From: Crossaster papposus
Lineage: Eukaryota > Echinodermata > Asteroidea > Velatida > Solasteridae
NCBI GenBank assembly: GCA_037893245.1
Contig: JBAIAA010000019.1
Coordinates: forward strand, 806,001-870,000
Direction of reading: 5' to 3'
Length of the DNA: 64,000 bases
Under the pieces are notes generated by a model, which saw only the letters and a program-made list of their open reading frames with translations, was not told where the DNA came from and did not search any database. A program made the translations under genes and the position numbers. Positions 1 to 51,894 of this stretch are shown here, one piece after another (position 1 is the first letter of the stretch; every line of letters starts with the position of its first letter).

Positions 1-237
1 TTGTTCGTTTGTCACAGCATCTAATATCTGTTGCTGGGGCTGCATGTGAGGGCCTGAGGCTGCCTGGTGGGGAGGTGGATTCAGTGACATTCCTTTCAAT
101 TGGTTGGTGGTGTTGTGGTCTATCATCATCGGATGAGGCTGACCCATGTTATGTTGATTAAAGTTGAGTTGGGGGTGTTGGTTTGGCATCGGCATCGGCA
201 TCGGCATGCTGTCATGTGGACGCATAGGATCCATGTC
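1..237 (-). CDS. Exon 12, Met/Pro/Gln/His-rich region (continues past window start)
   Basis: The exon begins after a ttatttgcag acceptor in phase 0 and stays open to base 1, giving 79 residues. The composition (MPMPMPMPNQ, HPMMIDHN, PPPHQAASGPHMQPQQQ) resembles the low-complexity body of BCL9 between HD1 and the beta-catenin-binding HD2. HD2 itself is not in the window. Confidence 0.75.
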
Positions 238-3200
238 CTGCAAATAATAAAATATATTCACTTATTAATAACTTCATAAAATGTAACGATCAAGCCGCTA
301 AAGAGTTCCAGATGTCATTGAGACGTGAAAATTCCACGAGGAACGGGCATGATGCGATTTTGCATTCAAAGCGGACACGGCCAGTAGCAGGATGTGATTT
401 CAACAAACGATTTCCAAAATCACATCCAAATGTTCCAAATTCACATCCTCAGTCCAAATCCACATCCTGGGCCAAGTTCGATCAAGGACTATAGTTAACT
501 ATAGTTTGACTAACTCTGATCGAACTCAGGCTAGTCGACGATGGTTGGACTAGTCTAGTCGACTATTCACGACCAGCCTACCGCGGTTGGTCGCATCACT
601 GGTAACCAATAGCCGCTTTAATAGCACAGTACAGAGAGGACCAGTTTGGCAGTTAATGGTCAATAGTTCGACTAGAGTCGTTCGCACTTCAACTTCAGTG
701 CACATGCCCTAACGACGTCACGAACTAACCACTAGTTAAGTATAGTTCCTTGATCGAAATTGGCCTTGGATAAGGTCGTTAAAATGCAAATTCACATCGG
801 TGGATGTGAATTTGGACTTTAACTACTTAACACAGGTTGTGAATTAAGACTAAAGATGTGAATTTGGAGCATTTGGATATGATTTTTAAAATCTTTTGTT
901 GAAATCATATCCTGCTACTGGCCGTGTCCGCTTTGAATGTAAAATTATATCATGCCCATTCCTAGTATTTGTATTGATATTAAATGTGACCTGGCACCAC
1001 GAAATTATCAGAAAGTCGCACATGGCCAAAACGAGTTATTGGCCGAAACGTTATTTTTTTCATGTGGGAGGTCGGTTTCGAGTTGTTAATGTTTTTACAT
1101 ACAAAAAGCTCATCTTTATTATTTTCCAAAATTGTATAGCTCAATTAAACCTCTAAAGTGTGTTTTTGTGTGGCTGAATTGCACTGAGTGATAGTATAGT
1201 TTGCACGATTACCAGACTTTAAACTCCGTTTTCTCAAAACAAGGTGGCATGACTTCAGCAATTTCAAAGGAGTATAGCGCCGGCTAGGAATAAGCTACAG
1301 CAACACACAAAACATCATTTGAAAGCTTAGGACTTCTTCTTTCTAGAAATGTAATAATGCCAACTTTATTTTGCAACTTTTCACCCATTTCGTGGTACCA
1401 GGTCACAAATGAATACAAGAATTAGGTGAAATAAAAAAGGAATGCCTTGATTGGATGAAAAGAAGTACGAAAATATGTCAACCACTGGAAAGCTCAAATT
1501 AACCCATCGACGACGATATTGTCAGCGTCCCATTTCTCACTGCACCAGATTACACGGATAACCGCACAGAAGTCTTTGTTCAGTAGCTGCACTGCACAAT
1601 GAACTGAGCGTGCAGCTGCCTCGCAGGCCGTGTTCTACGACATAGCACGGGCTGGCCACAGCATTATGAGCCAAGTGATACAAACCGGGATGACGTCACC
1701 TGGCAGCGTATCATTTTTTACTTCACGAACGCGCGACGGAAATCGGCCAATGATGGGCGACGGAATCGGCCAATGGCGCGCTCCAATTTGCTCATGAATA
1801 TTTATGTAATAACAGTAAATACTCACCTGCTCAGGTAGAAGAAAGTCCCTGTTTGCCGACTGCGCCCGATGAAAGGAGAGAATGGAATCCACTTGGCCCG
1901 TAAAAATAGCGTGAGCAGCCTGATTAGCTAGTCTTGTAGAGAAGACGCAGACCTCCTGTGTGCTTGTCATAGGAAAGTGTGATGGCTGCTGATATGGCAT
2001 CATAGGAGTAGATAGTCCTCCATGTCCAACACCATCTGCAATAACACAGTAATAGCAATGTCACTAGAGAGCTTTTGACTCGGGACGGGAGACAAAGATG
2101 AAGGTAAGCCGAGCTAAACAAAATCGATCTGCGTATGTCTCCGTCCTGTTGTATCTACATGTATAAAGGCTTGGGTAACCACATTTTTAAGTGTTTGGCC
2201 ATGGTGCTACCGCGGTGCTACCGCGGTGCTACCGCGGTGCTACCGCGGTGCTACCGCGGTGCTACCGCGGTGCTACCGCGGTGCTACCGCGGTGCTACCG
2301 CGGTGCTACCGCGGTGCTACCGCGGTGCTACCGCGGTGCTACCGCGGTGCTACCGCGGTGCTACCGCGGTGCTACCGCGGTGCTACCACGGTGCTACCAC
2401 GGCTCTACCACGGCTCTACCACGGCTCTACCGCGGCTCTACCGCGGCTCGACCATGGTTCGATCATGCTTCGACCATGCTTCGACCATGCTTCGACCGTG
2501 GTTTTACCAACTGGTCACTGTCCAATGTACCGTATAAAAAGTCCTATGGAGATCAGAGGTCATAACAAAGTTGTTTTGTTCATCCTAAGCCCAACAGGAT
2601 GGAGACATTTCAACATGAACAAAGGCACGACTTGAACCTGCGACCTCCGGAACACCGGACTACCACCTGAGCTATCTTGCCCTATTGTTGTGTCTAGATA
2701 GCGCCCTCTTGCGGAGGTGAGAAAGAAGTGCGCCATGTTGGATGGTAAATAAATAAAGTGTTCTTGTTCCCACTACATAACACCTATGTTGGCGGTCTCT
2801 CAAATTGCCAGCATCTTTGTTCGAGGACGGAGACATGTCGGTTTGGCGAATGCGCGGATCGGTGTTTTCGCTCGGCTTATCGTCTACTTCCCGAATCGAA
2901 AGCTCTCTATTATCTGCAATGATGAGCCCCATAGTATATAGGAAGTTGTTACAAGGTACATGTACATGTAGGTAAGGTAGGTCGAGGAGGCCTAAACATT
3001 GTGACAGTGTGTCCTAGGTTTAAACTACCATCAGCTATATCGGCCGATACAACGACAGTCCTTGTATTCGAGGCCAGCCATTATTTACCTACCTGCTATC
3101 TTATTATTTTCTCCATTGGACTTGGCCATCTTCATATTGTCTCTAACGCCGTCAGTCCCGCACCAATCCAATTCCTTCGGCTTGGCGTCACTTTTCCTCT

Positions 3201-6200
3201 TGCCGCGAGAAGGCAGCTTTTCATCTGCGATAAAAAAGTAAACTCTACTCATCACAAAAAGTATCGAGACACTCAAAAATGAGCCAATAATTAACGTCCC
3301 GAAAGGGTATGGATTCATCGAAGCAAATAACCCAGTGCATAATTTTGTTCTGCGTATTTTGACGCCTCGATTGTTGAGATACGATGTTGCGGAGCGGAGT
3401 TATTGTCATTTCAATGGTCGTAGGTCCAGTTTCAAAAGTGGCAATCATCCCTATAGAAGCAGAAGCAGAACCTGATCATTCAAAACAATAATGCAAACCT
3501 GCGATATTATAAAATGTCCGAAATGCCGTCTACAGCTACAATGAGATGAATTCTAGCACATTGGCCTGAAGATGCTAATAAAGGCCCAAATAGGGCACGA
3601 AAAACAATGATGGTTGCATAGCAACACTGTTGTCAAGGAAACCATGCGACGTACAGTGTATGCTTGTAAATATTTATGTTCAGTTTCTGCCTATACGTAA
3701 ATATGTTACCTACATCTTTTCTTTAACTTCTAATTGACAATAATAATCGTTATAAACCAAATTCACACGCGATTATAAACAGCCATTTTACACGATTCAG
3801 AAAACCCCGCGGGCCTACCACCGCAACATGTACCACGCAACCTACATGTACATTATGTATGTACATTTACATTGCACATGTACGCCTGCTATGCATAGTC
3901 ATTGCACGACTCGGGACTACCCCAATAGCGAAAGCACGCGGGCCGTTTGTCCAAACAACAAGTAGCAGAACCTGATCATTCAAAACAATAATGCAAACCT
4001 GCGATATTATAAAATGTCCGAAATGCCGTCTACAGCTACAACGTAGCTCGGGCAAAACAAAATGGCGGCAGCACTAACGTTAATTTTGGAGCAAATGTTC
4101 TGATTATTTTTGAATGATTTTTGCATTGAATCGCAACTAACAAACTGATAAAGACGTCAATATCATCAGGTCTTTTCAATAACATCTAGCAGACAATAAA
4201 TTCCTACATCGTAATTTTGCAAACACGAATTCAAGCATTGCTCGAGGGCGCAATAACTAGCTGTAGCCGCGTCCGAATTCCATTTGCCATTAGTGCCTAT
4301 GTAGACAAAGCTGTAGACAGTAGCTCTAGAAACTTTTTCGGACAAGGCCTTAGGCCGAGGGTTCTTGTATCGTGTTACGACCGAGGATGGAAACACAAAA
4401 GAGAACAAAGGGAATAATAAATTCTTGAAGGATGGTTGGTGTTCGAATTCGGTCCACAATCGTTTCGAGTAAACGCTAGGTAATGGGGCTAAGGTTATAG
4501 TACAGGAATAAAGGGAAACACAATAGGGGATCCTCGGTCGTTATGTAATTCACGACTATGGGTAGGCATACACCGAGTTACAGGGGGGACACTGACCAAG
4601 TTATTTGGACCTTTTCGTGTCCCTATAGCATTTTGGGTCTCCGGTAAAAGGTTCTAGAGGTAAAATTGGGTTAGGGTATAATGAAAGAAAATTAGGGTAA
4701 TGTTGAACATATTAGGTAGAAAGAATTTTCAGAGATTTTCCTTAACCAGTTCGCGCCAGGATTATTGTAACATTCACCGAGCCGAGGCGCGGGATTATTT
4801 TAAAAGAAACTTGATTTGAGACGGGTTCAGGCCGATGGTACCGGGAAGCACACCAACGCATTTCCGGCTTTGCTCGCTGCTGACAGACATTTCCGGACTT
4901 GTTCGTGACGTTTTTATGCACCATCCGTTTTGAATCTCGGACAAACGTTACGTGTAAATACATCCTCCGGCGCGAACTGGTTAAGCACACGTACCCTATA
5001 GAATATGGGTGTCTTTCTGAGTGTGTAGTTTTTTGAAAGCAATTTGTATAACTTAATTTTTTTTAAATGATGTGTTCCGTAACTTCCGTTTTCTTTGAAA
5101 CACCCCGTCTATTCACCTTTGTTTCCATCCGGTCCGTTGCCCAAATTGTGATCAGGTAGAAACACCGAGTCTTCCTCGTCATTATTTTTGCCCATCTTAG
5201 ATCTGCTACCTCCCCTCTCTGTTTTCACATTAACACACATCTTGCTGGATAAGTCACTATTGTCCCCCTTGATCCCATTGTCGTCTAGTCTTTTCCTCAG
5301 CGCACATTCCTCTTTGATGGTAGGTAGGGAGGGCGAGTGGAGCGTTTGGGTGTTGACTTGCAAGTCGGCGCTGTTTGCCAATTGGGCTAACTTGGTCAGT
5401 TCGTCTGACATCTTGGCAATGTCTTGTCTTTCCTGGTGCAAAATCTCCTGGTAGTCAATTTTCGGCAGGCTGTATTCTCGCTGTACAGGAAAGAATATTT
5501 AAACCATTTTATATACCAACTACTCGCCAAGTGCATTATCATGTAATGACCAGGGTTGTCACCACGCCGGGCGGCGCCGGACGGTGCTACCCAGCTCCCA
5601 AAATTTCCGCCCGGTACTCAAGGTTAAGTTCAGCCTTACCGCCCGGCTCAAATTAACTCAGGCCTCAACCTTGCCGCGATGCCCCAGCCAATTGCCGTGA
5701 AGCCCATTCAAAAAAACACGTACCTTACGGCCACTTGGCCGTCGTTCCCCTTTCCATTTTAATTATACTATGTATTCGAAAGTGTTAACGTTAACGTTGT
5801 GACCCATTATGAGTAAAATTGTACATAGCGTACGCGCGCTCCCGCACACTGGTTTTCATAATGCTGCTTGCCATGGGTTGCCACGCATCGCGCAAAGTAC
5901 ATGTACTTATCTTCCTGCAGTGGAGAACCGAACGTGGCATGGCAACCATATCAAAGTAGTTGAGTTGTTTACTACTAAAAACACGGCACCAGACTACTCT
6001 CGTGTATAGACTGGCTACAGGTCCCTACACTGAATAGGTCGTATTATTGAACGTTGAGGGCGCTGTGATTAGGAGATAATTCACGTCAGGCCGCGGATCG
6101 ATGGCACAAATTACCCGGTTCTATAAATGGTCTGGTGACAACCCTGGTAATGACCAATCAACGTTGAGAGGGTCAACGTTGAGAGGGTCAACGTTGAGAG

Positions 6201-9200
6201 GGTCAACCTCGAGGGGGTCGACCTCGAGGGGGTCGACCTCGAGGGGGTCGACCTCGAGGGGGTCGACCTCGAGGGGGTCGACCTCGAGGGGGTCGACCTC
6301 GAGGGGGTCGACCTCGAGGGGGTCGACCTCGAGGGGGTCGACCTCGAGGGGGTCGACCTCGAGGGGGTCGACCTCGAGGGGGTCGACGTCGAGGGGGTCG
6401 ACGTCGAGGGGGTCGACGTCGAGGGGGTCGACGTCGAGGGGGTCGACGTCGAGGGGGTCGACGTCGAGGGGGTCGACGTCGAGGGGGTCGACGTCGAGGG
6501 GGTCGACGTCGAGGGGGTCGACGTCGAGGGGGTCGACGTCGAGGGGGTCGACGTCGAGGGGGTCGACGTCGAGGGGGTCGACGTCGAGGGGGTCGACGTC
6601 GAGGGGGTCGACGTCGAGGGGGTCGACGTCGAGGGGGTCGACGTCGAGGGGTCGACGTCGAGGGGGTCGACGGCGAGAGGGTCGACGGCGAGAGGGTCGA
6701 CGGCGAGAGGGTCGACGGCGAGAGGGTCGACGGCGAGAGGGTCGACGTCGAGAGGGTCGACGTCGAGAGGGTCGACGTCGAGAGGGTCGACGTCGAGAGG
6801 GTCGACGTCGAGAGGGTCGACGTCGAGAGGGTCGACGTCGAGAGGGTCGACGTCGAGAGGGTCGACGTCGAGAGGGTCGACGTCGAGAGGGTCGACGTCG
6901 AGAGGGTCGACGTCGAGAGGGTCAACGTCGAGAGGGTCAACCTTGAGAGTCTCAGCTCTAAATGGCAAATCTGCAAAGTCGTGAGTCTTTGAGCTAAGTT
7001 TCTTCAAGCTACATCTACCGTACAACCAACTACTCACCAGCACCTCAGCTTCCCGACCCTCCTTAGCAGCCTGCTTCAAACGCTTCCTTCTTTGTTTGGC
7101 TTCTAGTTTTTTATCCTTAAAACCAATGGAAAAGAAGACATGTACATGTAACTCCAAGGTACCGATATATTCTATAGCCACAGATATATTCTATAGCCAA
7201 CAGGTTTTTGTTTTCTTTTTAACCTGGGGCCAATTTCATGGAGCTGCTAAGCGCAACAAATTTGCTTAGCACAAAAAGTCTTGCGTAGTAAAAGCAGGTT
7301 ACCAGCCAAAAATCCATGTGCTTTTCATGCTAAGCCAAATCCAGCTGAATACCAGTCACAAACAATATACATCACCTGAAAATTTGGTTCGTAACCCTGT
7401 TTTTGCCAAGGAAGAATGTTCATGCTAAGCACATTTTTATGCTAAGCACATTTTTTGTGCTTAGCAGCTCCGAGAAATTGGCCACAGTTTGCGTCAGAGG
7501 ACGTACAGGTATATACCCGCAACGTTTTCCCCAGATTTAAAATGGATGATGCATAAACACGTCACGGGCAAGGCCGGAAATGTCTGTCAGCAACGAGCAA
7601 GGCCGGAAATGCATGGTTGTGCTTCCCGATACTATCGGCTTAAACCAACCTCGAATACTCGAATACTTGAATACTCAAATACTTGCGAGTACTCGAATAC
7701 TCAAATACTTGCGAGTACTCGAATACTCTCGAATACTCAAATACTCGCGATTACTTGAATACTCTCGAATACTCAAATACTCGCGAGTACTCGAATACTC
7801 AAATACTTGCGAGTACTCGAATACTAAAATACTTGCGAGTACTCGAATACTCGCGAATACTCGCGAGTACTCAAATACTTGCGAGTACTCGAATACTCAA
7901 ATACTTGCGAGTACTCGAATACTCAAATACTTGCGAGTACTCGAATACTCGCAATTACTCGAATACTCGCGATTACTCGAATACACAAATACCCGCGAGT
8001 ACCCGCGAGTACTCATCAGTACTCGAATACTCAACTACTCGCGATTACTCGAATACTCAACTACTCGCGAGTACTCGAACTACTCGCAAGTACTTGAACT
8101 ACTCGAGAGTACTCGAACTACTCGCAAGTACCCGAACCACTCGCGGGACTCGAGTAATTACATTACTTGCCCAGCAGAACTTGCCATTCACGGATTAGTC
8201 TCTTCTCCAAAAGCATGCTCCTACAACCAGGCAATGATAACATACATGTTTTCTGTACAAGTACCCTTTCCAAAAGTCACAATGCACAGGCATTGCTTAC
8301 ACAGTACTCGTTTGCAAGATTCTGTTCACTGCTTCATCATGCAATGAAATAAGTCATTTTGTACAGACTTGCTCACACAAAAACCCAGACAAAGTTGAAC
8401 ATTTTAGTTTTTTATATTTCCATTTTGTTTTATTTTCTCGAGGTTACCGGCTTTAAAATGATGATTTATTTACATATGTACCTCACACTATCTTTCCTGA
8501 GGGGAGGATTTAGTGATAAAACCCTGTAAACCTAATTTTGAGATAAACAGCTTTGAAGTTCAGAAAAGCGTATTATTTCTATACACAATTGTTTCACAAA
8601 ATTGACAAAAAAGCACACTTCCTGGCGACAGATTATGTTCAAACTTAGGGAGATTGTAAATTAATAGTTCGCGATTAAAACGAACCCAAAACCTCAAAAT
8701 GATAAAATTCACCCAAAATGACTTCACAAGTACATTGTAATAAAACACATTGTGCGACTTTAGGTCCATGTTTCGTTGGAACAGGTCACATATGGTACGT
8801 GTACGTGTAAGTTTCAGTCTAGCGTGGAGTTTCGTGGCTTCGTGGCCTGGAGCATTGACTTTGTAATCTGTAGGTAAAGTTGCAGGTTGTGGGTTCGAGT
8901 CCGGCCTGGGACTACGGTGCGTGTGCCCTTGGTCAAGGCACTTTATCACTCATTGCTTCTCTCCACCCAGTAGTAAATGGGTACCTGTGAGGGCAGAGAT
9001 GGTTATTGTGGTTGATTTAGCTGATTTGCGCCGAAATGGCAGCATCGAGCTGTATACTCCCCAGGGAGCCGAGATGGTATTTGGAATGTTTCATGGGCCT
9101 AATGACCGGGGTAATAACGTGAGAGCAGCACCTTGAGTACCAGTCTTGGTAGATACGTGCATTATGCCCGCATTTCACCAAGGATTGTTTTTTTGCAATC

Positions 9201-24200: not shown

Positions 24201-27200
24201 TATGCGTCATCCGTTTTGAATCTGGGGAAAACTTTGCGTTTATATTCGTCATCCGGCGCGAACTGGTTAAAGGTAGGATACACCATTGGTAATTGCATGA
24301 ATTATCATGAATGGGTTTGATTTGGGGAGTTGTATTTTGTAGTAATTACCGTTTTAACTGACCTGTTCGAAGTTTTACAGTCATTGATGCCGAGAAAAGC
24401 ACGAAAAACAGCGTTTGTTTTAAACCGGCGTCACGCAGTTATTCTTATGTTATATTTTTTTTTTCGTCGATGGCGAAGTTTTCTTCATAAAATTCTATTT
24501 TTCGGAATAATTACAGGATATCTAGCGCAATCATTTTGCTGGATGCCTAGAATCATTATTTACTTTCAAATGAGTAAGATAATTCTAAAACATTCAATAG
24601 TAAATAATGTTGATATCTTCAAATGGTGTATCATACCTTTTAAGAGGATTATCCTAGCATATAACAGTCACAAATGTGTATTGAAAAAAACTTCATGGTG
24701 TGAGAAATATTAGTATTTGGTGAAATTTGATCGATGGTTCTGAACGACACGAATACAAAGGATGTCTACATAGAGAAGGTAAGGTTCGTATGTTTTTGTG
24801 TACACCCTGTGTGTTCCAACTCAAACACAGCCCAACACACAACCAATGGCCAGTCATCACAGCCCTGATCCTGAACACTGAACAATGCATAGACCCATCT
24901 GTACCAAGTCAATCAAACTTCAACTGTCGGAGTTTGGCAGGTTTAGTACTGTTACATGTAGGTTCAGTACAGTGCACCGATAATTACTGAACCGGTGTGC
25001 AGTTGTTGAAGTTTGTAAGGTTTGGTATGCTTTCTAGTGCGAGAGCCTAGGGGGTTAGGGTTAACTACTGAACCTGTGTGCAGTTGTTGAAGTTTGTTAG
25101 GTTTGGTATGCTTTATAGTGAGAGAGCCTAGGGGGTTAGGGTTAACTGCTGAACCTGTATGCAGTTGTTGAAGTTTGTTAGGTTTGGTATGCTTTCTAGC
25201 GCGAGTGCCTAGGGGGTTAGGGTTAACTACTGAACCGGTGTGCAGTTGTTGAAGTTTGTTAGGTTTGGTATGCTTTCTAGTGCGAGAGCCTAGGGGGTTA
25301 GGGTTAACTACTGAACCGGTGTGCAGTTGTTGAAGTTTGTTAGGTTTGGTATGCTTTCTAGTGCGAGAGCCTAGGGGGTTAGGGTTAACTACTGGACCTG
25401 TGTGCAGTTGTCGAAGTTTGTAAGGTTTGGTATGCTTTCTAGTGCGAGAGCCTAGAGGGGTTAGGGGTTATGTTATTTAATCTGTCTTACCTCCAAATCA
25501 AATTGGCTGAAATGGAATTTAAATCGGAAAAGCCCCACAAATTGGTACACAGAAACTGTCTCCCACATGCAGCGTAACTGTAAGACGTCTTCCGATTCTG
25601 AAAAATACAGGCAAATAGGAAAGTACATGTATTCCAAAAATGTATCATTCTACGCATTTGTAAGGGGTTCTAAAATAAGGCAAAACTGGGCAGAGGTTAA
25701 AGGTAGGATACATCATTTGCAGATATCAAAATTATTTACTACCGAATTATTAACAAATATCTTACTCATTTGAAAGTAAATAATGATTCGAGGCATCCAG
25801 CAAAATGATTGCACTAGATATCCTGTAATAATTCCGAAAAATAGAATTGTATAAAGACAAATTTGTGATCGCCGGACGGCGATCGCGAAAAAACAAAGAT
25901 AACATAAGAATAACTGCTCGACGCCGGTTGAAAACAAACGCTGTTTTTCGTGCTTTTCTCGGCATCCATGATTGTTAAACTTCGGAAAGGTCAGTTAAAC
26001 GATATTTACTATAAAATACAACACCCCAAATCTACCCATTCGTGATAATGCAAGCAATTAACAATGGTGTATACATACTACCTTTAAAATAAGTTTTTTT
26101 AAGCATTAAAGATAGGATACACACCATTTTGCAGATATCACAAAATTTGACTCCCGAATTATTTTGAAATATCTTACTTATTTGAAAGTAAATCACAAAA
26201 TGTTTGCGTTAGATATCCTGTATTTGTTCAAAACAAATTAATTTTATAAAAAAAAATCACGATCGCCAGATAACAACACGGCAACAACAAGAACCACTGC
26301 TGGTTAAAAACATTCGCAAAAAAAACCAAAACATAAGAACCACTGCCCGACGCCGGTTGAAACCGAACGCTGGTTTTCTTGCTTTTCTCAGGACCCATGA
26401 TTGTAAAACTTCGGAAAGGTCAGTTAAACCCCAGATTTACCCATTCCTGATAATTCAAGCAATTACCAATGGTGTATCCTACCTTTAAGAAATTAAAGAG
26501 AACCTGAACGAATTCTCGATAGTCGGTACGCGACGTCTAGGTACGAGACGGATTCGCGTGTCCACGGTCGCACACATTGTTGTGTGTGTACGTACCCACA
26601 CTGTACGAATCGTGTACGCTTTGTGCACGGTAATCAAATTTCACATGGACGATTGTGAAAGTTCTTCCTCGTTTTTTGGTGAATCCGACGAAAAGAATAC
26701 TGATTCGTCGATTCGAATCACAGTTTTTCTTATTCAGACACGGACCCGAGCGAGGATAAAGATGGGGTCCTTCTAGGCGCTCTACTGCTGAAAATGGTCG
26801 CTGCAGAGGGCCCGGACCACTTCGCTCTGGTAAGCTTTACTTTGGCTGTCCAAATCCTCCGATATTTAGGATCAGCCGGAAACAAATGAAGGCTTACTCC
26901 ATCCTTAGTAGTTTTGCTACACCTAGCAGCTACACACCTAGTCAGCATGACCGAAAACTGATTCAGAATGAAAAAACATGTAAAGACGGACACTTGTTGC
27001 AATGCGCGCAGTCAGTATACGATAGGCCGGGTAGCAGCGCGGCGAGTCTCTGCCTCGATTTTCGTCATACCCCTCGCAAGGTTTTATGTTAATGAGGCTT
27101 CCCCCATTTATCACAGAAAATAAACACCACACACATGTTGTTGACAACATTATACTTTATTGATTTAGGCAAAAGAAACACCTTATTACATGTTTTCTTT

Positions 27201-30200: not shown

Positions 30201-32573
30201 CAGAGGGCGCTCTGCTAGTGCCCTATGCAGAGCCGTAGATAGAGACCCTATGTTGTTCGGTGCGATGAGCTTTGCACACCGCGCCTGCGCAGACTTGGTC
30301 CGCCATATTGTTTTGCGTTAATCGCGAATTATTTTTGGCCAGTCTATACATGAGTAGTCTGGTACCGTGTTTTTAGTTGTGAACAACTCAACTACGTTTG
30401 ATATGGTTGCCATGCCACGTTCTCTGCAAGTACTTGCGCGATGCATGGCGCAAGCAGCATTTATGAAAACTAGTGTGCGGGAGAGCGTTCGCTACGTACG
30501 TCGAAACAATTTGATCTTCGTAATGGGTCACAACGTTAACAATATTTTTAATAACACTTTCGACTACATAATATAATAGAATCAATGAAAAGGGGCACGA
30601 CGGCCAAGTGGCCGTAAGGTACGTGGTTTTTTTAAGGGGCTTCACGGCAATTCGCCGGGGCATCGCGGCAATGGCCGCTGGTGGCCGCTGTAGAGGTTGA
30701 GGCCTGATATTGCTCGCGACCATCGCGCTATCAATCCGACCACCCACGTGTGTAACACCATTCGACAGCTAAACAAATGAACTATTCGGAACTAAATCGC
30801 TTGATTTCCAAAGGAAATTTTGTGAGAAAGAATAACATTATTACAAATATGGACTCTCTGAGACAGTAAGAACTTTGAGTTCCAAAAAAGGAAGACGCAA
30901 AAAGTTTTTAAACTGTCATAACTCACCCAAAACTTCACCGATTCGGAAGCTTTTTTCAGCACTAGACAGCGGCCATCTTAGCTTTTTCTCATACCATCAC
31001 TACGCATGTGCAGTACCCTATGCATAATGATTTCATTCATAAAACTGAAGCGAGTCCGTACCCGGAAGTGGCCGAAGGCGATGACGCGCGTAAAGCGAGA
31101 ACGTACGATGACGTCATAATGAGCGGCGCTGTTCACCTAATTTGCATATGGGAATTACCGCGATAAGTTTGTACGTGTGAAGAACGTCATCCAACCTGGG
31201 CTACCTCCATCCATGATCTGCCAATCTACTGTAGGGCCAGGCAAATGTTTATTTGAGTCAAGGACACAAGTAAGAAGTGGGCCTAAAGTTGTGTTCGCAC
31301 TGGATTTTATCTTGGGAAGGTTTTACTGAGACGATGGTAAAATAAAAGAAGGTCAAATTTTACCACTGTTCGCACTTGGACTTTCGACACGGGAAAATTT
31401 TACCGAGACCGCGGGAGAAGTAGCCGAGCTGTCATTACAATGACTCATGAAGGCAAATGTGATCACAATGCGATGTGCATGCATCAGCGCGCGCACGTAA
31501 ACAATGCAAAGAGCGCATGCGCGGTGTCTTGTGTAGCATGAAATCGCAGTAGGGGGCCGGATGTACGTTTTTCCGAGACGCTTTAGTTTTACCGACTCGC
31601 GCTGTTCGCATTGGACTTATAGTCTAGGGAAAAGCGGGAATAGCCGGTTAGCGGTGTACAGCCGAAGCTCCACCCAGTCTGTCTTTCCTTGGTTTACGCT
31701 GATTGGTCGAGATTGTTGATAGGTTTTGAAGTGCGGGGTTATAAATGTAAACCTCGTTTGGTGAGAATTTCGCTCAGTCTCTGGTAAGTTTTTGTCATTT
31801 TTCCCCCAAAATATTTTCTCAATGATGTTTAGAGTGTTATGAGTGGAGTCATTACACATTGCAGATCAAATCTGTGTTCTTAAAATGTGTGTCATGATCT
31901 TTAAAAGTGGTTAAAATCCGGCAAATCCGGTGACTAGTCTGGCAAAAATGGTCGAAATTATAAAAATGCCAATTCTGTACACTGTTTGACTCGTAACCCT
32001 CCGGTCTTCGACCGTCGGGAGGATGGTGGGTTACGATTATCGCAACTAGGGAAATCGATGTGCAGACATTTCGTACAACGATGCCAACGGGTCTTGCTTG
32101 GACCCTAATATCACCCGACCATGTCCAAATGTTGAAAAGGGTGATTTTTGGGTCCAAGTTACTCGGACCATGGAGGAATAATTCCTCCATGCTCGGACTA
32201 AGTGCGAACAGGGCTTGACAAACATCACTGATTATTAGATAGAGAAGGCCAACTTTAAAGAATCTGACAAGTGACACTGGCATTGACACATAGTCACACT
32301 AACATTAGACTGAAGTTAACGTAAACGTTTCATTCGATTTAGTAGCCTGTGCATTACCCATGCCCCATGGCATTACCATTGCAAACCGCTTGGGCAAGAA
32401 CCGTGCATAAACAAGTCAATGTTAAATCAGTTCCATTTCCAACCCACATCGTACATACATGCAGAGCCAACATTTCTAGTTCTACCCAAAAGCCGTTTTT
32501 ATAAATATCGTTGGACATGAAAAGAAACATAAAAGATGCCAAACGTACCTGTGGTCGGCTTCTTACGCGGCAT
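1..32573 (-). CDS. DDT-WHIM protein with a BCL9-type HD1 segment (12 exons, 3' end outside window)
   Basis: Spliced minus-strand gene rebuilt by eye. Exons: 32549-32573, 25491-25597, 22930-23024, 14899-15007, 14310-14405, 11148-11202, 10800-10987, 7038-7115, 5117-5480, 3093-3224, 1827-2035, 1-237. Every junction has GT/AG ends and matching phase (1,0,2,0,0,1,0,0,1,1,0), giving at least 565 residues. Residues ~10-76 align with the DDT domain of CECR2 (W..VSVYQFVGLF, DLE-x-ARLLRF). Residues ~77-225 match the linked WHIM region (YWYFNGLRLYK; WQCICNGLEEW; LLDEVMPI). Residues 226-300 are charged and helical, with IKEE and VKTE sumoylation-type motifs nearby. Residues 447-474 match BCL9 HD1 (VFST..AN.AA, GQV..I.SFH.Q). 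The tail is Met/Pro/Gln/His rich. In known families DDT-WHIM proteins pair with ISWI ATPases and HD1 binds the Pygopus PHD finger. A chromatin/Wnt adaptor role is inferred. No bromodomain is seen in the window. The alternative is two neighbouring genes whose exon phases agree by chance. Confidence 0.8.
339..963. mobile_element. Inverted-repeat element with a second one nested inside
   Basis: The outer arms are AGGAACGGGCATGAT...GCATTCAAAGCGGACACGGCC (339-~395) and the reverse complement at ~905-963. Between them lies a second element (470-766) whose ends GGCCAAGTTCGATCAAGGA / TCCTTGATCGAAATTGGCC are inverted. A related copy of the inner element is at 51032-51731. No coding capacity. Confidence 0.7.
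986..1409. mobile_element. MITE family with TGTGACC...GGTCACA ends
   Basis: Inverted ends TGTGACCTGGCACCACGAAA and CGTGGTACCAGGTCACA enclose AT-rich non-coding DNA. Relatives with TGTGACC/GGTCACA ends recur at 23112-23552, 37580-38025 and 38388-38768. Confidence 0.6.
1827..2035 (-). CDS. Exon 11, BCL9-type HD1 (Pygopus-binding) segment
   Basis: The exon is 209 bases, phase 1 to 0, with a tattgcag acceptor and a GTGAGT donor. It encodes EVCVFSTRLANQAAHAIFTG and then QVDSILSFHRAQ. BCL9 HD1 reads VYVFSTEMANKAAEAV, GQVETIVSFHIQ; VFST, AN.AA, GQV and SFH.Q are all kept. In BCL9/Legless this helix binds the back face of the Pygopus PHD finger. Confidence 0.85.
2203..2505. repeat. 11-bp minisatellite (GGTGCTACCGC)
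   Basis: About 17 near-identical units of GGTGCTACCGC are followed by diverging units (GGCTCTACCAC, then ATGCTTCGACC). It lies in intron 10 of the DDT-WHIM/HD1 gene. The open frames through it are artefacts of the stop-free unit. Confidence 0.95.
2605..2700 (-). mobile_element. tRNA-derived SINE fragment
   Basis: The minus strand shows a tRNA-like head (GGGCAAGATAGCTCAGGTGG, B box GGTTCAAGTCG) with the family 3' flank TTTGTTCAT. Relatives are at 36675-36790, 50165-50280, 50380-50462, 50615-50705 and 50835-50920. Confidence 0.6.
3093..3224 (-). CDS. Exon 10, basic linker before HD1
   Basis: The exon is 132 bases, phase 1/1, with a tatcgcag acceptor and a GTAGGT donor. It encodes LPSRGKRKSDAKPKEL and a polar stretch. 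BCL9 has a similar KGKGKRERSISAD-like basic patch upstream of HD1, so this may be a nuclear localisation signal. Confidence 0.6.
3464..3541 (+). repeat. 78-bp direct repeat, copy 1
   Basis: The sequence starting AGCAGAACCTGATCATTCAA is identical to 3964-4041, exactly 500 bases away. The spacer has no recognised gene. Confidence 0.9.
3964..4041 (+). repeat. 78-bp direct repeat, copy 2
   Basis: This copy has the same sequence and orientation as 3464-3541. The flanks differ, with CTACCCCAATAGCGAAAGCA upstream and ACGTAGCTCGGG downstream. Confidence 0.9.
4200..4560. repeat. Dispersed repeat (AATAGGGGATCCTCGGTCG type)
   Basis: Its right part (GGGAAACACAATAGGGGATC) recurs at 37225-37285 and, inverted and degraded, at 11800-12000. 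The left part has no recognised content. Confidence 0.4.
4746..4980. mobile_element. MITE with CCAGTTCGCGCC ends, TTAA-flanked (piggyBac-like)
   Basis: It is flanked by TTAA on both sides, with inverted ends CCAGTTCGCGCCAGG and CCGGCGCGAACTGG. About 235 bases, non-coding. TTAA duplication is typical of piggyBac transposition, so this is probably a piggyBac-mobilised MITE. Confidence 0.75.
5117..5480 (-). CDS. Exon 9, helical and acidic linker with sumoylation-type motifs
   Basis: The exon is 364 bases with a cctgtacag acceptor and a GTGAAT donor. It encodes about 121 residues. The first ~40 are a predicted helix (YQEILHQERQDIAKMSDELT). The rest is a polar linker carrying IKEE and VKTE, both fitting the psi-K-x-E sumoylation consensus. 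No family domain is recognised. Confidence 0.65.
5655..6025. repeat. Dispersed repeat, inverted relative at 30335-30715
   Basis: The pieces GGCCTCAACCTTGCCGCGA, ACGTACCTTACGGCCACTTG, GCATGGCAACCATATCAAA and ACACGGCACCAGACTACTC are found in reverse order and orientation at 30335-30715. Two copies of one element lie in opposite orientation 25 kb apart. Confidence 0.65.
6164..6948. repeat. 15-bp minisatellite (GGGGGTCGACCTCGA and variants)
   Basis: About 52 units in four consecutive variant blocks: AACGTTGAGAGGGTC, then GACCTCGAGGGGGTC, GACGTCGAGGGGGTC, GACGGCGAGAGGGTC and GACGTCGAGAGGGTC. One G is missing near 6650, which shifts the frame of all open readings. Each unit carries SalI-type GTCGAC sites and CpGs. 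It lies in intron 8 of the DDT-WHIM/HD1 gene. Confidence 0.97.
7038..7115 (-). CDS. Exon 8, basic coiled-coil segment
   Basis: The exon is 78 bases, phase 0/0, with a GTGAGT donor and a ttttaag acceptor. It encodes 26 residues rich in Lys, Arg, Ala and Glu (KQRRKRLKQAAKEGREAEVL). It is likely a basic helix continuing from the WHIM region and a nuclear localisation signal. The 15-bp minisatellite starts about 90 bases downstream in the intron. Confidence 0.65.
7226..7484. mobile_element. MITE with GGGGCCAATTTCATGGAGCTG ends
   Basis: The ends GGGGCCAATTTCATGGAGCT and AGCTCCGAGAAATTGGCC are inverted, and the inside carries GCTTAGCA-type repeats. Other copies are at 38248-38935, 45143-45633 (two nested), 51941-52184, 52186-52437 and 53231-53478. 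Confidence 0.8.
7495..8155. repeat. Truncated TTAA-MITE running into an ACTCGAATACT minisatellite
   Basis: Bases 7495-7645 match the CCAGTTCGCGCC-type MITE (GGATGATGCATAAACACGTC, AAGGCCGGAAATGTCTGTC). Where the MITE should continue with its GATCGAGTTTCG end, an irregular array begins (7648-8155) of CGAATACT, CAAATACT and TGCGAGTACT words in 8-26 base units. The array looks like an expansion that started inside the MITE. Confidence 0.75.
8375..8795. mobile_element. Non-coding inverted-repeat element, relative at 52440-52850
   Basis: The left end ACCCAGACAAAGTTGAACA and right end GTTTCGTTGGAACAGGTC match, inverted, the copy at 52440-52850 (GAAACCCGGACAAAGTCGAA). The interior pieces AATTGTTTCACAAAATTGA and ATAATACGC are shared too. 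No intact ORF. Confidence 0.55.
8826..9140 (+). mobile_element. tRNA-derived SINE
   Basis: The head has Pol III boxes (A-box-like TGGCCTGGAG, B box GGTTCGAGTCC), followed by a conserved middle (TGGTCAAGGCACTTTATCAC, GGGTACCTGTGAGGGCAGAG) and a 3' part (TACCAGTCTTGGTAGATAC). A 3' fragment of the same family is at 11646-11690. Confidence 0.7.
9300..9360. repeat. Short imperfect hairpin
   Basis: TTGATCAGCTACTGTTTTT and AAAAACAGTAGCCGATCA are inverted around ~9332. The surrounding 9170-9470 has several GATCGGCCCGAT words and no recognised gene. It lies within intron 7. Confidence 0.5.
10490..10765. repeat. GGGTC pentanucleotide repeat
   Basis: A degenerate (GGGTC/GGTCA)n tract spans 10490-10640 and becomes perfect (GGGTC)n at 10706-10765. 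It ends 35 bases from the exon 7 donor (10800). Confidence 0.9.
10800..10987 (-). CDS. Exon 7, WHIM2/WSD region
   Basis: The exon is 188 bases with an atgcag acceptor and a GTAATG donor. It encodes GLRLYKDQVNPKKGKAAWQC, then CNGLEEWQAFLKS and LYHYLLDEVMPII. It matches CECR2 (GTRMYKE; WWLLCQTEEEW; LYKLLSEDFLPEI). The exon ends in phase 0. A run of GGGTC repeats starts about 35 bases downstream of its donor. Confidence 0.8.
11148..11202 (-). CDS. Exon 6, WHIM strand (QDALSNQYWYFN)
   Basis: This is a 55-base micro-exon with a tgtttcag acceptor and a GTAAGT donor, phase 0 to 1. It encodes RFLSVGQDALSNQYWYFN. CECR2 (LGEDNSGALYWYFYG) and RSF1 (IGRDKDGLMYWY) have the same G-x-D...YWY signature, the most diagnostic motif in the N-terminal part. 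Confidence 0.8.
11371..11604. mobile_element. MITE with CGCGTTCGCATTGGACTTA ends
   Basis: The ends AAACCGCGTTCGCATTGGAC and GTCCAATGCGAACACGGCTT are inverted. A related copy lies at 31275-31622 (TGTTCGCACTGGATT, GTTCGCATTGGACTTA). Non-coding. Confidence 0.7.
12258..12458. repeat. 81-bp telomere-like repeat block (2.5 units, split by a hAT-like insertion)
   Basis: The unit, read on the other strand, is TTAACCCTAACCCCCTAGGC, then CTCTCGCACTAGAAAGCATA and an ACAGGTCCAGTAG end. This block continues at 14196-14290 on the other side of the insertion. Other blocks are at 18885-19465, 20895-21965 and 24986-25470. Confidence 0.85.
12459..14195. mobile_element. hAT-like non-autonomous element (1.7 kb) with 8-bp duplication
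   Basis: The terminal inverted repeats TAAGCTTGGGCGATACC and GGTATCGCCCAAGCTTA are perfect over 17 bases. The flanks GTTAGGGT (12451-12458 and 14196-14203) form an exact 8-bp duplication, the hAT length. Subterminal ATCGCGATAT repeats occur on both sides. No hAT transposase motif is visible in either strand, so it is non-autonomous. It splits an 81-bp telomere-like repeat unit. Confidence 0.85.
14310..14405 (-). CDS. Exon 5, WHIM1 motif
   Basis: The exon has a ctttttag acceptor and a GTAAGT donor and is 96 bases long, phase 0/0. It encodes LFLLKRLIDTVYSCNCEDL and then EYLDDHYSPDDM. It corresponds to the leucine-rich helix (KLALLKYLCE, EILHRLCD) that precedes the MRLQPIG/RVEPLG strand in DDT-WHIM proteins. 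Confidence 0.75.
14490..14600. repeat. ATCGATAT-rich palindromic tract
   Basis: The tract contains many ATCGATAT and ATATCGAAATATCGA words, similar in style to the subterminal repeats of the hAT-like element at 12459-14195. It may be a solo end of a related element. Confidence 0.4.
14676..14880. repeat. Dispersed repeat, relative at 61535-61755
   Basis: Shared words in order: CCTGTTTTCTCAGTTG, a GGGGCTAT core and ACCAAATGAAAGCTTA, ending near GGAGCGGGTCACA here and GGAGTGGGCCACA at 61750. Non-coding. It ends 19 bases from exon 4 of the DDT gene. Confidence 0.6.
14899..15007 (-). CDS. Exon 4, DDT-WHIM linker
   Basis: The exon has a ttttgtag acceptor and a GTAAGT donor and is 109 bases long. 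It encodes a segment with NWEGHIHQFIKEK, a KGYLSS stretch and ALSPSDR. RSF1 has the same layout (W..YL..I, then KGYLEMS and a short helix leading into the WHIM1 motif). Confidence 0.72.
15100..15566. other. No gene seen (15100-15566)
   Basis: This holds GCTAGCCCG words at 15155-15205 and otherwise no recognised coding or element structure. The open frame at 15383-15688 runs into the palindrome and is not credible. Confidence 0.4.
15567..16562. mobile_element. 1-kb near-perfect palindrome (fold-back element) with 8-bp duplication
   Basis: The arms of about 494 bases read inward from TGGGTCTTTCCATAAATAAG (15567) and its complement at 16562, and meet at TACATGTACA (16061-16070). Differences are few, e.g. 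GTGTCTCAGTTACAG versus GGGTCTCCGTTACAG blocks. The flanks TATACATA and CATACATA differ at one base and look like an 8-bp target duplication (hAT-like). The sequence is non-coding. Confidence 0.9.
17250..18145. repeat. TGTACATG-rich low-complexity tracts
   Basis: Two clusters (17255-17620 and 17940-18140) are dominated by TACATGTACATG and ACATGTACGT words. The area between includes GGTTAGGGTTAGTGTTTGGG. Open frames here are Cys/Tyr/Met/Thr-rich artefacts of the repeat. Confidence 0.7.
18240..18850. mobile_element. Two adjacent AAGGTAGGATACACCA-type MITEs
   Basis: Two copies (18240-18592 and 18592-18850, the second truncated) share AATTATTA(A)GAAATATC, GGCATCCAGCAAAATGATTG, a GATCGCC block and AAGCAATTACCAATG. 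Other copies are at 23836-24010, 24270-24650, 25696-26092, 26108-26486, 35390-35656, 36470-36953, 40850-41100, 56123-56473 and 57766-59966. Confidence 0.75.
18885..19465 (+). repeat. 81-bp telomere-like repeat, about 7 units
   Basis: The unit starts TTAACCCTAACCCCCTAGGC and contains CTCGCACTAGAAAGCATACC and CTAACAAACTTCAACAACTG. Units differ at a few positions. Confidence 0.92.
19466..20894. other. Intronic DNA between two 81-bp repeat blocks; nothing recognised
   Basis: This is part of intron 3 of the DDT-WHIM/HD1 gene. It includes a C8A13 run near 20062 and several short open frames with no family resemblance. Neither strand shows an exon with DDT-like content here. Confidence 0.5.
20895..21965 (+). 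repeat. 81-bp telomere-like repeat, about 13 units
   Basis: This is the largest block of the family. Units alternate between CAGGTCCAGTAG and CAGGTTCAGTAG, and between AAGCATACC and AAGCATGCC with CCTCAACAACTG. This suggests duplication of two- or three-unit blocks. Confidence 0.95.
22216..22540 (-). mobile_element. Non-LTR retrotransposon 3' end (CR1/L2-like)
   Basis: The minus-strand frame from ~22540 to 22357 encodes ATGDKAFSIAGPKEWNKIPR then YIRDSPSVQIFKKGLKTHLF and a stop. This is the typical C-terminal end of LINE reverse transcriptase proteins (GDRAFS.A.P.LWN.LP..IR...S...FK..LKT.LF). It is followed by AAGCGCTTTGAT...AGCGCTATATAAATACC and a TTATTA-type tail (22216-22245), as in L2/CR1 3' ends. 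The upstream sequence in other frames is degraded, so the copy is 5' truncated. Confidence 0.75.
22930..23024 (-). CDS. Exon 3, C-terminal half of DDT domain
   Basis: The exon has a cctgtatag acceptor and a GTAAGT donor and is 95 bases long, phase 0 to 2. It encodes DFEYSLAQEESILVADLFAR followed by LLRFALRRTDI. This follows the CECR2 pattern FE..EL..AL...D...ISDL...LL.G...R.DI. Confidence 0.75.
23112..23552. mobile_element. MITE with TGTGACCCACCACCCCAAAAC ends
   Basis: TGTGACCCACCACCCCAAAA and TTTTGGTGTGGTGGGTCACA are inverted ends about 440 bases apart. A GGTTTTTTTTTGTTTTTT-type run sits inside. Non-coding. It starts ~90 bases upstream of exon 3 of the DDT gene. Confidence 0.75.
23593..24650. 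mobile_element. Cluster of four TTAA-flanked MITEs of two families
   Basis: Elements with CCAGTTCGCGCC ends at 23593-23831 and 24038-24266 alternate with AAGGTAGGATACACCA elements at 23836-24010 (truncated) and 24270-24650. They share TTAA junctions at 23832-23835 and 24267-24270, so both families appear to use the same TTAA target. Confidence 0.75.
24780..25470 (-). repeat. Composite of a 200-bp dispersed repeat and an 81-bp repeat block
   Basis: Bases 24800-24985 (AACACAGCCCAACACACA, GACCCATCTGTACCAAGTCA, GAGTTTGGCAGGTTTAGTAC) recur at 56760-56950. Both copies are followed by the 81-bp family (about 6 units here, one degenerate unit at 56950-57040), so the two parts belong to one larger repeat. 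Confidence 0.75.
25491..25597 (-). CDS. Exon 2, N-terminal half of DDT domain
   Basis: The exon has a tttttcag acceptor and a GTAAGA donor and is 107 bases long. It encodes 35 residues including LRCMWETVSVYQFVGLF. This matches the first DDT helix of CECR2 (LRSWWEVPAIAHFCSLF) in the position of its Trp, Val/Ile, Phe and LF residues. Confidence 0.75.
25696..26486. mobile_element. Two AAGGTAGGATACACCA-type MITEs
   Basis: The copies 25696-26092 and 26108-26486 start ~100 bases upstream of exon 2. Each has the GATCGCCGG..GCGATCGC hairpin or its remnant and the GGCATCCA(GCAAAATGATTG) core. Short open frames on the minus strand are shared by many copies and are not genes. Confidence 0.75.
26780..26957 (-). 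pseudogene. THAP zinc-finger remnant with frameshift
   Basis: The minus-strand frame MLTRCVAARCSKTTKDGVSL HLFP continues with DPKYRRIWTAKVKLTRAKW, giving the first cysteines, GVS.H.FP and the R..W..V...R..W core of a THAP DNA-binding domain. The expected final CSxHF does not follow in this frame. It appears as ALCSDHFQQ in another frame, then a stop. A small indel therefore breaks the domain. THAP domains occur in P-element-type transposases and host THAP proteins. No transposase core is nearby. It sits in intron 1 of the DDT-WHIM gene. Confidence 0.6.
27370..28030. repeat. 17-bp minisatellite (GGCTGGACGACTCGACA)
   Basis: About 39 units with ordered variants: GGACGACTCGACAGGCT, GGACGACGCGACAGGCC, GGACAACTCGACAGGCC, GGACAACGCGACAGGCG and GGGCAACTCGACAGGCC. 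It lies in intron 1 of the DDT-WHIM/HD1 gene. Three long open frames per strand exist only because the unit lacks stops. Confidence 0.96.
28119..28290. mobile_element. 5' part of a CCAGTTCGCGCC-type MITE
   Basis: It begins at TTAA (28115-28118) with CCAGTTCGCACCGGGATTAT and runs to TTTTCGGCCTTGCTCGTTGC. The other end is missing. Confidence 0.65.
28660..29160. mobile_element. Fold-back element (500 bp)
   Basis: The left arm (ATTTTTACCTGATGAAGGAA, CAGATCGTCATGGGTTACAC, CATCATGTACGAACTT) is repeated inverted on the right (AAGTTCGTACATGATG, GCCATGACGATCTG, TTCCTTCATCAGGTAAAAAT). The centre is a GC-rich CGTGCGCGTGCACGCGCG stretch. Non-coding. Confidence 0.8.
30128..30335. mobile_element. 200-bp inverted-repeat element
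   Basis: ATTCGCGATCAACGCAAAAC, GTCTGCGCAGGCGTGCA and CACCGAACAACA are mirrored by TGTTGTTCGGTG, GCGCCTGCGCAGAC and GTTTTGCGTTAATCGCGAAT. Non-coding. Confidence 0.75.
30335..30715. repeat. Dispersed repeat, inverted relative of 5655-6025
   Basis: It shares GAGTAGTCTGGTACCGTGTT, TTTGATATGGTTGCCATGC, ACGACGGCCAAGTGGCCGTA and GGTTGAGGCC with the earlier copy in the opposite direction. Confidence 0.65.
31275..31622. mobile_element. Relative of the CGTTCGCATTGGACTTA MITE
   Basis: It carries three GTTCGCA(C/T)TGGA(C/T)TT words at 31291, 31367 and 31606 and internal GGTAAAATTTGACC-like stretches. Ends are less clear than in the copy at 11371-11604. Confidence 0.5.
32549..32573 (-). CDS. Exon 1 (start codon) of the DDT-WHIM/HD1 gene
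   Basis: The exon encodes MPRKKPTT plus one base of the next codon and ends at a GTACGT donor. It joins in phase to the exon at 25491-25597, where the split codon becomes Glu. A basic MPRKK start is common in chromatin proteins. The start is supported by the phase fit and by a YY1-like promoter motif about 50 bases upstream. Linkage over a 7-kb intron is inferred from phase and content only. Confidence 0.6.
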
Positions 32574-36469: not shown

Positions 36470-37193
36470 CGGCGTTGTACCTGTACTACATATTTTATAG
36501 TAAATACCGTTTAACTGACCTGTCTGAAGTTTTACAATCGTGGATGCTGAGAAAAGCAAGAAAAACGACGTTCTTTTTTTAAACCCGCGCTGGGCAGTTG
36601 ATCTTATGTTCTAATGAAGGGCTTGGGTGCAGGAGGACTGCAACTGTACTTCCAAGATCTCAATTAGTTGAGAATGAATTTGAACAAAGAAATTGGCAAG
36701 GCAGGACTCGAACCTGCGACCTCCGGAATACCGGACCGGCGGTCTACCATCTGAGCCATCTTGCCCTATGTTGGCGCTGGCGGTCTCCCAAATTGTTAGT
36801 ATCGATTTTTCGGAAAATATACAGGATATTTAGTGCAATTTATTTGCTGGATGCCTATAATCAATTTACTTTCAAATAAGTAGGATGTTCCCTAATAATT
36901 TGGTACTATGGTAGTAAATTTTGTTGATATCTGCAAATGATGTATCCTACCTTTAACCAGTTCGCGCCGGATGACGTATATAAACGCAAAGTTTTCCCCA
37001 AATTCAAAACGGATGACGCATAAACACGCCAAGTTCAAGTTCGAAAATCTCTGTCAGCAGCGAGCAAGGCCGGAAATGCAAGGGGGTGTGCTACCCGGCA
37101 CTATCGGCCTGAACACGCTTCGGATCGAGTTTCGTTAAAAAATAATCCTGCCCCTCGGCTCGGTGATGTTAAAATAATCCTGGCGCGAACTGG
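36470..37193. mobile_element. AAGGTAGGATACACCA MITE interrupted by a SINE, then a CCAGTTCGCGCC MITE
   Basis: 36470-36600 and 36795-36953 are two parts of one MITE, split by a tRNA-derived SINE on the minus strand (~36605-36790; B box GGTTCGAGTCC at ~36710, A box TGGCTCAGATGG). 36957-37193 is a full TTAA-flanked MITE with CCAGTTCGCGCCGGA ends. Confidence 0.7.

Positions 37194-37307: not shown

Positions 37308-51894
<14,587 letters not shown>

What the first reader, a model, noticed from the sequence alone, without database searches (positions are those of the whole stretch)
1..32573. A DDT-WHIM remodeller module and a BCL9-type HD1 segment appear in one gene
The sequence shows 12 minus-strand exons whose phases all fit. 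The first seven encode a CECR2/RSF1-like DDT-WHIM region and exon 11 encodes a BCL9-like HD1 (VFST..AN.AA, GQV, SFH.Q). In known families DDT-WHIM binds ISWI-type remodellers and HD1 binds Pygopus. A single protein carrying both would link Wnt/Pygopus transcription to nucleosome spacing. I know of no description of this architecture.
Basis: partly seen in the sequence, partly recalled or inferred. Interest (0 to 1): 0.9.

Follow-up and report, generated by a model that had tools for sequence, protein, structure and literature searches.

The report
Chromatin-remodeller and Wnt-cofactor domains fused
One animal gene appears to encode a single protein that joins the part of CECR2 that holds ISWI nucleosome-sliding motors to the part of BCL9 that holds the Wnt cofactor Pygopus, an unexpected combination that transcript data should now confirm or break.

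Summary
On the minus strand, 12 exons with GT/AG splice sites run from an ATG at 32573 to the window edge, and all 11 junction phases fit. Exons 2-7 encode a CECR2-type DDT-WHIM region: Pfam DDT E=4.9e-7, and a colinear 186-column match, 28% identity, 70.5 bits, to human CECR2 recalled from memory. Exon 11 encodes a BCL9 HD1: E=6.5e-6 to the crystallised BCL9 peptide, with all five invariant Pygo-contact residues kept. An exon scan with coding scores not trained on these exons recovers most of the chain. Exon 9 needs a coding exon before it, and exon 8 is the best candidate found. A two-gene split, most plausibly at exons 9/10 or with an early end in intron 7, is not excluded. Most likely it is one gene whose product ties ISWI to Pygopus/Wnt enhancers; that function is inferred. 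Not shown: transcripts, orthologues, the species, and the beta-catenin-binding HD2, which would lie beyond the window edge. Queries pairing BCL9 with DDT, CECR2 or SNF2H, or Pygopus with ISWI, listed no such protein (listings only).

The parts
32549..32573 (-). exon 1: start codon and MPRKKPTT, phase 0 to 1
   Evidence: ATG at 32573, donor in the top 0.3% of GT; weakest-supported exon, 25 bases
25491..25597 (-). exon 2: first part of the DDT domain (from 25562 down)
   Evidence: Pfam DDT residues 21-71; site found by splice scores alone, where an acceptor at 25669 in another frame scored slightly higher
22930..23024 (-). exon 3: second part of the DDT domain (to 22944)
   Evidence: Pfam DDT; recalled CECR2 alignment
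14899..15007 (-). exon 4: end of the DDT region and start of WHIM1
   Evidence: found by splice scores alone; Pfam WHIM1 residues 100-121, 14.2 bits, below cut-off
14310..14405 (-). exon 5: WHIM1 region (LFLLKRLIDTVYSCNCEDLTEYL..)
11148..11202 (-). exon 6: start of WHIM2 (VGQDALSNQYWYFNG)
10800..10987 (-). exon 7: WHIM2 (LRLYKDQ..AAWQCICNGLEEWQAFLKS..LYHYLLDEVMPII)
   Evidence: no Pfam hit
7038..7115 (-). exon 8: charged basic linker, phase 0 to 0
   Evidence: coding score above 4,000 of 4,000 random open stretches; donor in the top 0.2%, acceptor only in the top 6.0%
5117..5480 (-). exon 9: linker without recognised domain; by eye hydrophilic, with two SUMO-site-like motifs (IKEE, VKTE; motif recalled); phase 0 to 1
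   Evidence: best-scoring internal exon of minus 1-33000; 0.8% of random open stretches score as high as its first 23 codons; an in-frame stop follows two codons past its donor
3093..3224 (-). exon 10: basic linker, phase 1 to 1
   Evidence: second-best internal exon of minus 1-33000
1827..2035 (-). exon 11: contains HD1 (1958-1869), the Pygopus-PHD-binding segment
   Evidence: PDB BCL9 E=6.5e-6, Pygo2-BCL9L 5.5e-5, 'protein BCL9 homolog' (Legless, name recalled) 4.1e-4
1..237 (-). exon 12: Met/Pro/Gln/His/Asn-rich stretch, runs off the window; true exon end unknown
   Evidence: acceptor in the top 0.1%, open frame
6161..6938 (.). 15-bp minisatellite inside intron 8, between the two halves; a possible assembly weak point
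   Evidence: unit found nowhere else in the window

Best explanation
A single gene encodes a nuclear adaptor protein. Its N-terminus is a CECR2-type DDT-WHIM1-WHIM2 module; after a linker of 217 residues, in which no bromodomain was detected, comes a BCL9-type HD1, then a Met/Pro/Gln-rich region that runs off the window. Inferred mechanism: DDT-WHIM docks an ISWI ATPase (SNF2L/SNF2H type), HD1 docks the Pygopus PHD finger, which reads H3K4me, so one polypeptide carries nucleosome remodelling to Pygopus-marked Wnt enhancers. Shown here: the exon chain, DDT and HD1 homology, the kept HD1 contact residues, and that exon 8 is the best coding partner found for exon 9. Inferred: that one mRNA spans both halves, and both binding activities.
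For: 11 of 11 junction phases fit, frame open over 565 codons. DDT E=4.9e-7 against Pfam. Match to recalled CECR2: 52/186 identical in one piece (residues 15-197 of the model), and 15/63 in a second piece for WHIM2; local score 187 against at most 59 in 300 shuffles (its BLAST E-values, 5e-18 and 5e-4, are for a two-sequence set). HD1 to six BCL9-family PDB sequences, with T182, A185, N186, A189 and I200 kept and V201 as L (residue roles from passages of PMC2726290). Exon scan. With strict splice scores, 14450-32549 gave 4 open candidates, all at the sites of exons 2 and 4 (exon 3 fell just under the donor cut). Exons 8-10 carry coding signal, and so do the 23 codons before the first Met of exon 9. 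Outside the minisatellite, intron 8 has no ATG exon with a phase-0 donor above 0.5; intron 7 has two above 2, with coding scores -3.9 and -0.8. The 5480 acceptor is the best within 7037-5300. No AATAAA/ATTAAA on that strand between 5763 and 1370. From passages read: CECR2 needs its DDT domain to bind SMARCA1/SNF2L (PMC7948406); deleting HD1 disrupts the BCL9-Pygo-LDB1-SSBP2 complex (PMC10287724).
Against: No transcript or orthologue could be examined. Without splicing, a stop follows exon 9's donor by two codons, and an ATG at 3252 opens into exon 10 with an unreduced coding score (8.7 against 8.5 for exon 10). Intron 7 holds short possible terminal exons for the DDT-WHIM half: 8984 (acceptor 4.7, above exon 9's 4.3; 12 codons, score 0.0; AATAAA at 8470 and 8434) and 8867 (17 codons, score 2.1), neither repeated elsewhere in the window; they would leave exon 8 without a home. 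One ATTAAA (5763) lies in intron 8. Exons 9-10 resemble neither recalled CECR2 nor the recalled N-termini of BCL9 or Legless, so they tie the halves only by frame and splice sites. Minisatellites in introns 8 and 10 could hide a misjoin. WHIM1 is below cut-off, WHIM2 without Pfam hit. Exons 2 and 5 have negative codon scores; 36% of random open stretches score as high as exon 2. Exons 2-7 were joined partly by eye for likeness to CECR2, which inflates that comparison.
Confidence: 0.75

Rival explanations
1. Two neighbouring genes on one strand: a CECR2-like DDT-WHIM gene that ends in intron 7, intron 8 or just after exon 9, and a separate BCL9-type gene that starts at 3318 or 3252 or inside exon 9, 10 or 11.
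For: Stop two codons beyond the exon-9 donor and an open frame from ATG 3318 or 3252 into exon 10. Possible terminal exon at 8984 with AATAAA 0.5 kb further on. In-frame Met codons at 5411, 3135 and 2003. Known CECR2 and BCL9 are separate genes (recalled).
Against: A split at exons 9/10 must ignore a donor in the top 0.4% and an acceptor in the top 0.3% of the strand that fit in phase; none of the 16 other acceptors above 1 in intron 9 leads to a terminal exon with AATAAA/ATTAAA within 600 bases; only variant signals such as CATAAA occur in 5116-2036. The start at 3252 reads through what looks like the polypyrimidine tract of the exon-10 acceptor. A split after exon 8 would need a terminal exon at 5914, 6062, 6143 or 6970, all with negative coding scores (-7.0, -3.5, -1.1, -88); 5914 and the ATTAAA at 5763 lie in an interspersed repeat (5671-6015, 78% identical to 30338-30671). 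A split after exon 7 leaves coding exon 8 unexplained, and its AATAAA at 8470 lies in a repeat (8435-8785).
Confidence: 0.16
2. An assembly misjoin across the intron-8 or the intron-10 minisatellite has put two unrelated loci together.
For: A 778-bp array of 52 copies at 98% match lies between the halves, another of 22 copies in intron 10.
Against: Neither array's 14-mers occur elsewhere in the window; the phases match across the arrays; no first coding exon for the second half was found in intron 8; the window holds no N.
Confidence: 0.05
3. A chance chain of open frames with splice-like ends, with no real gene.
For: Exons 1 and 6 are short; several codon scores are near or below zero; one plus-strand candidate, 26738-26829, scores 19.5 in the same scan.
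Against: Two independent significant domain matches and a chain of in-frame exons.
Confidence: 0.01

Closest known systems
CECR2 (CERF complex accessory subunit)
   Same: DDT, WHIM1, WHIM2 in this order at the N-terminus; colinear match to recalled human CECR2 13-193, 28% identity
   Different: WHIM2 follows without the long insert of recalled CECR2 (second BLAST piece); no bromodomain detected; continues into an HD1
BCL9 / BCL9L / Legless
   Same: HD1 with all five invariant Pygo-contact residues; Met/Pro/Gln-rich stretch after it (likeness to BCL9 recalled)
   Different: A DDT-WHIM module precedes it; exons 9-10 resemble neither recalled N-terminus; HD2 and HD3 not seen because the window ends
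RSF1 and other DDT-WHIM ISWI subunits (BAZ1A/ACF1, BAZ1B, BPTF; recalled)
   Same: DDT-WHIM layout (recalled)
   Different: weaker match to recalled RSF1, 32.7 bits; BAZ proteins and BPTF were not compared

Membership tests
DDT-domain ISWI accessory proteins | DDT domain above the Pfam cut-off | tested here: met
   PF02791 30.2 bits against 22
DDT-domain ISWI accessory proteins | WHIM1 and WHIM2 motifs | tested here: inconclusive
   WHIM1 14.2 bits, below 19.1; WHIM2 no Pfam hit; both align to recalled CECR2 and RSF1
DDT-domain ISWI accessory proteins | binds an ISWI ATPase | not testable with these tools
   needs a pull-down
CECR2 | DDT-WHIM at the N-terminus, colinear | tested here: met
   the reference was recalled from memory
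CECR2 | bromodomain after WHIM2 | tested here: inconclusive
   no bromodomain hit in the three minus frames of 1-7000 and 7000-16899 with stops as X; one search also missed the WHIM exons in unspliced form, and the gene runs off the window
BCL9/Legless | HD1 with the Pygo-contact residues | tested here: met
   E=6.5e-6; 5 of 5 invariant contacts listed in PMC2726290 (passages)
BCL9/Legless | HD2, beta-catenin-binding helix | not testable with these tools
   would lie beyond the left edge of the window
BCL9/Legless | HD3 (ChiLS binding) and C-terminal TLE-binding region | not testable with these tools
   would lie beyond the window; roles from passages of PMC5352222

The most novel reading that the evidence does not exclude
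In this animal, and perhaps in others, the BCL9 orthologue itself carries a CECR2-type ISWI-docking module, so the Wnt enhanceosome has its nucleosome remodeller built in; flies and vertebrates would have lost the module, or this lineage gained it.
Probability: 0.5. Interest if true: 0.78.

Novelty: new variant of a known kind. Interest (0 to 1): 0.62.

Why it matters
BCL9 and Pygopus recruit partners that act on chromatin at Wnt targets. A natural protein in which an ISWI-docking module and the Pygopus-docking segment share one chain would be a 'Rosetta' fusion: it predicts that CECR2/ISWI and BCL9/Pygopus work at the same enhancers in animals where they are separate proteins, which can be tested directly by co-purification and genomic mapping.

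Tried and rejected
No whole genome is held for this window, so the species and other loci could not be searched. The window's recurrent 81-bp repeat gave no match in prokaryote or viral contigs; for exon 11, 63 stretches of prokaryote contigs matched a pattern but none was confirmed as a relative. No eukaryote collection was at hand. Pfam on long unspliced frames found no DDT or WHIM because single exons are too short. PDB search with the DDT-WHIM half gave two weak, irrelevant hits (E=0.4 and 0.55). Weak, sub-threshold hits were set aside: NCBIfam BcsR_only, Pfam DUF3110, FBF1 and CBP_BcsR. Extensin and pentapeptide hits fall by position in the minisatellite. CpG ratio: exon-1 bin 1.43, bins 3501-5000 1.11-1.26, all unmasked bins of 1-34000 0.44-1.75; not decisive. 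Structure prediction and fold search were not used: the stated rule admits only unspliced window translations. Considered and rejected: exon 9 as first coding exon of BCL9; 9736-9698 as an exon of this gene (frame does not fit exon 7); 9773-9507 as a CECR2 exon (no family hit; a part of it none).

Full report
What was claimed.

The chain. I searched the minus strand for open frames with GT/AG ends and rebuilt the chain. The 12 exons listed in 'parts' give 1,695 bases, 565 codons, no stop, 11 of 11 junctions in frame, open at the window edge. Against every GT and AG of that strand, donors of exons 1-11 lie in the top 1.6% of 4,359 and acceptors of exons 2-12 in the top 6.0% of 3,518. With strict splice scores and an open frame as the only criteria, 14450-32549 gave four candidates: 15007-14899 (exon 4), 25597-25491 in two frames (exon 2) and 25669-25491, an alternative acceptor for exon 2 that scored slightly higher. 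Exon 3 fell just under the donor cut there.

Control. With a coding score not trained on the exons, nine non-overlapping candidates reach 10 on minus 1-33000; eight are model exons (exon 6 in shortened form), the ninth is 9736-9698. Exon 2 scored 8.3, and exon 4 was displaced by a shorter overlapping candidate. The other half-strands gave 3 (plus 1-33000), 5 (minus 33001-63900, one of them an exon of the UBE2T-like gene below) and 1 (plus 33001-63400). One plus-strand candidate, 26738-26829, scored 19.5, more than all but two model exons. The case therefore rests on the in-frame chain and the domain matches more than on single scores.

The first half. Pfam finds DDT at residues 21-71 (E=4.9e-7, 30.2 bits, cut-off 22) and a sub-threshold WHIM1 (14.2 bits, cut-off 19.1). 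WHIM2 has no Pfam hit. Against human CECR2, recalled from memory, model residues 15-197 align in one piece (52 of 186 identical, 8 gap columns, 70.5 bits) and WHIM2 in a second piece (residues 176-238, 15 of 63 identical, 27.7 bits). The local score is 187, against at most 59 in 300 shuffles. Recalled RSF1 gives 32.7 bits and 96, against at most 51. The BLAST E-values (5e-18, 5e-4, 1e-5) refer to a set of two sequences. I had picked some exons partly by their likeness to CECR2, so this comparison is not fully independent; the Pfam DDT match has the same caveat in milder form. No bromodomain appears in the three minus frames of 1-16899, but one search also missed the WHIM exons in unspliced form, so this is weak.

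The second half. The only PDB sequences that exon 11 matches at E up to 10 are six BCL9-family ones: BCL9 (best E=6.5e-6), Pygo2-BCL9L fusions (best 5.5e-5) and a 'protein BCL9 homolog' (4.1e-4). Passages of PMC2726290 list the HD1 residues that touch the Pygo PHD: invariant T182, A185, N186, A189, I200 and semiconserved V201. All five invariant ones are kept; V201 is L. HD2 and HD3 would lie beyond the left edge.

One gene or two: for one. Exon 8 has no stop and no ATG and scores as coding above 4,000 of 4,000 random open stretches, so it needs a coding exon on each side. The 23 codons of exon 9 before its first Met also look coding (0.8% of 4,000 random stretches score as high), so exon 9 needs a coding exon before it. 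Intron 8, outside the minisatellite, has no ATG exon with a phase-0 donor above 0.5; intron 7 has two above 2, both with negative coding scores. The exon-9 acceptor is the best in 7037-5300. Terminal-exon candidates in intron 8 with acceptor above 1 (6970, 6143, 6062, 5914) all have negative coding scores, and 5914 with the only ATTAAA (5763) lies in an interspersed repeat.

One gene or two: against. Two codons past the exon-9 donor is a stop, and ATG 3252 opens into exon 10 with an unreduced coding score (8.7 against 8.5). A split there would have to ignore two strong, phase-matched splice sites and lacks AATAAA or ATTAAA from 5116 to 2036 (CATAAA and other variants occur). Intron 7 has short terminal-exon candidates for the first half, the best by acceptor at 8984 (4.7, 12 codons, score 0.0, AATAAA at 8470 and 8434); 8984 is not a repeat within the window, while 8470 is in one. 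An early end there would leave exon 8 unexplained, so it may at most mark a second, short transcript. Minisatellites in introns 8 and 10 leave room for a misjoin; their 14-mers occur nowhere else in the window.

How it would work. CECR2 needs its DDT domain to bind SMARCA1/SNF2L (PMC7948406, passages). BCL9 HD1 binds the Pygo PHD finger and strengthens its binding of methylated H3K4 (PMC2726290, passages), and deleting HD1 disrupts the BCL9-Pygo-LDB1-SSBP2 complex (PMC10287724, passages). On one chain the two would bring an ISWI motor to Pygo-marked enhancers. This step is inference from the domains.

Novelty. In the library of open papers, 'BCL9' with 'DDT domain' occurs in 0; 'BCL9' with 'CECR2' in 8, 7 listed; 'Pygopus' with 'ISWI' in 9, 9 listed; 'BCL9' with 'SNF2H' in 5, 5 listed. 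By title and start of abstract none describes such a protein; I opened none of these. Wider queries gave 231, 16 and 274 papers, of which 20, 15 and 15 were listed; nothing there pointed to it either. Of the papers cited here I read passages only. Protein databases, where an unnamed prediction of this kind may sit, could not be searched.

Setting. Upstream on the same strand lies a UBE2T-like ubiquitin-conjugating-enzyme gene: two exons, joined with one assumed residue, hit UQ_con at E=3.5e-9, and further pieces lie at 47285 and 45039; the name UBE2T is recalled. The species is unknown; that it is an animal is inferred from the genes.

Noticed in passing
51888-44985, minus strand (possible C-terminal exon 37553-37311): A UBE2T-like (name recalled) ubiquitin-conjugating-enzyme gene: pieces [13 protein letters not shown].., [57 protein letters not shown] and [29 protein letters not shown]; UQ_con E=3.5e-9 for the first two joined with one assumed residue. 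The 37553 piece, with no Pfam hit, is assigned by position only.
   Followed up: partly
27011-26733, minus strand, and 26738-26829, plus strand: A THAP-domain fragment just under Pfam's cut-off (23.0 against 23.9 bits), inside intron 1; the opposite strand there holds the best plus-strand exon candidate of the scan (19.5).
   Followed up: no
36693-36766, minus strand; 2622-2690; 50189-50264: A tRNA-Thr (GGT); the stretch 2622-2690 in intron 10 is 82% identical to it and 79% to one near 50.2 kb, which suggests a tRNA-derived repeat family.
   Followed up: partly
2203-2446, 6161-6938, 27370-28022, 39490-40830, 41424-44804, 47419-48454, 55252-55730: Many long minisatellites of different units; the 16-bp array at 41424-44804 begins just beyond the last sure piece of the UBE2T-like gene.
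   Followed up: no
3461-3541 and 3961-4041: An 81-bp stretch duplicated at 98.8% identity within intron 9.
   Followed up: no
8984-8434, minus strand: A possible short terminal exon with AATAAA signals in intron 7, which could give a truncated DDT-WHIM transcript.
   Followed up: partly
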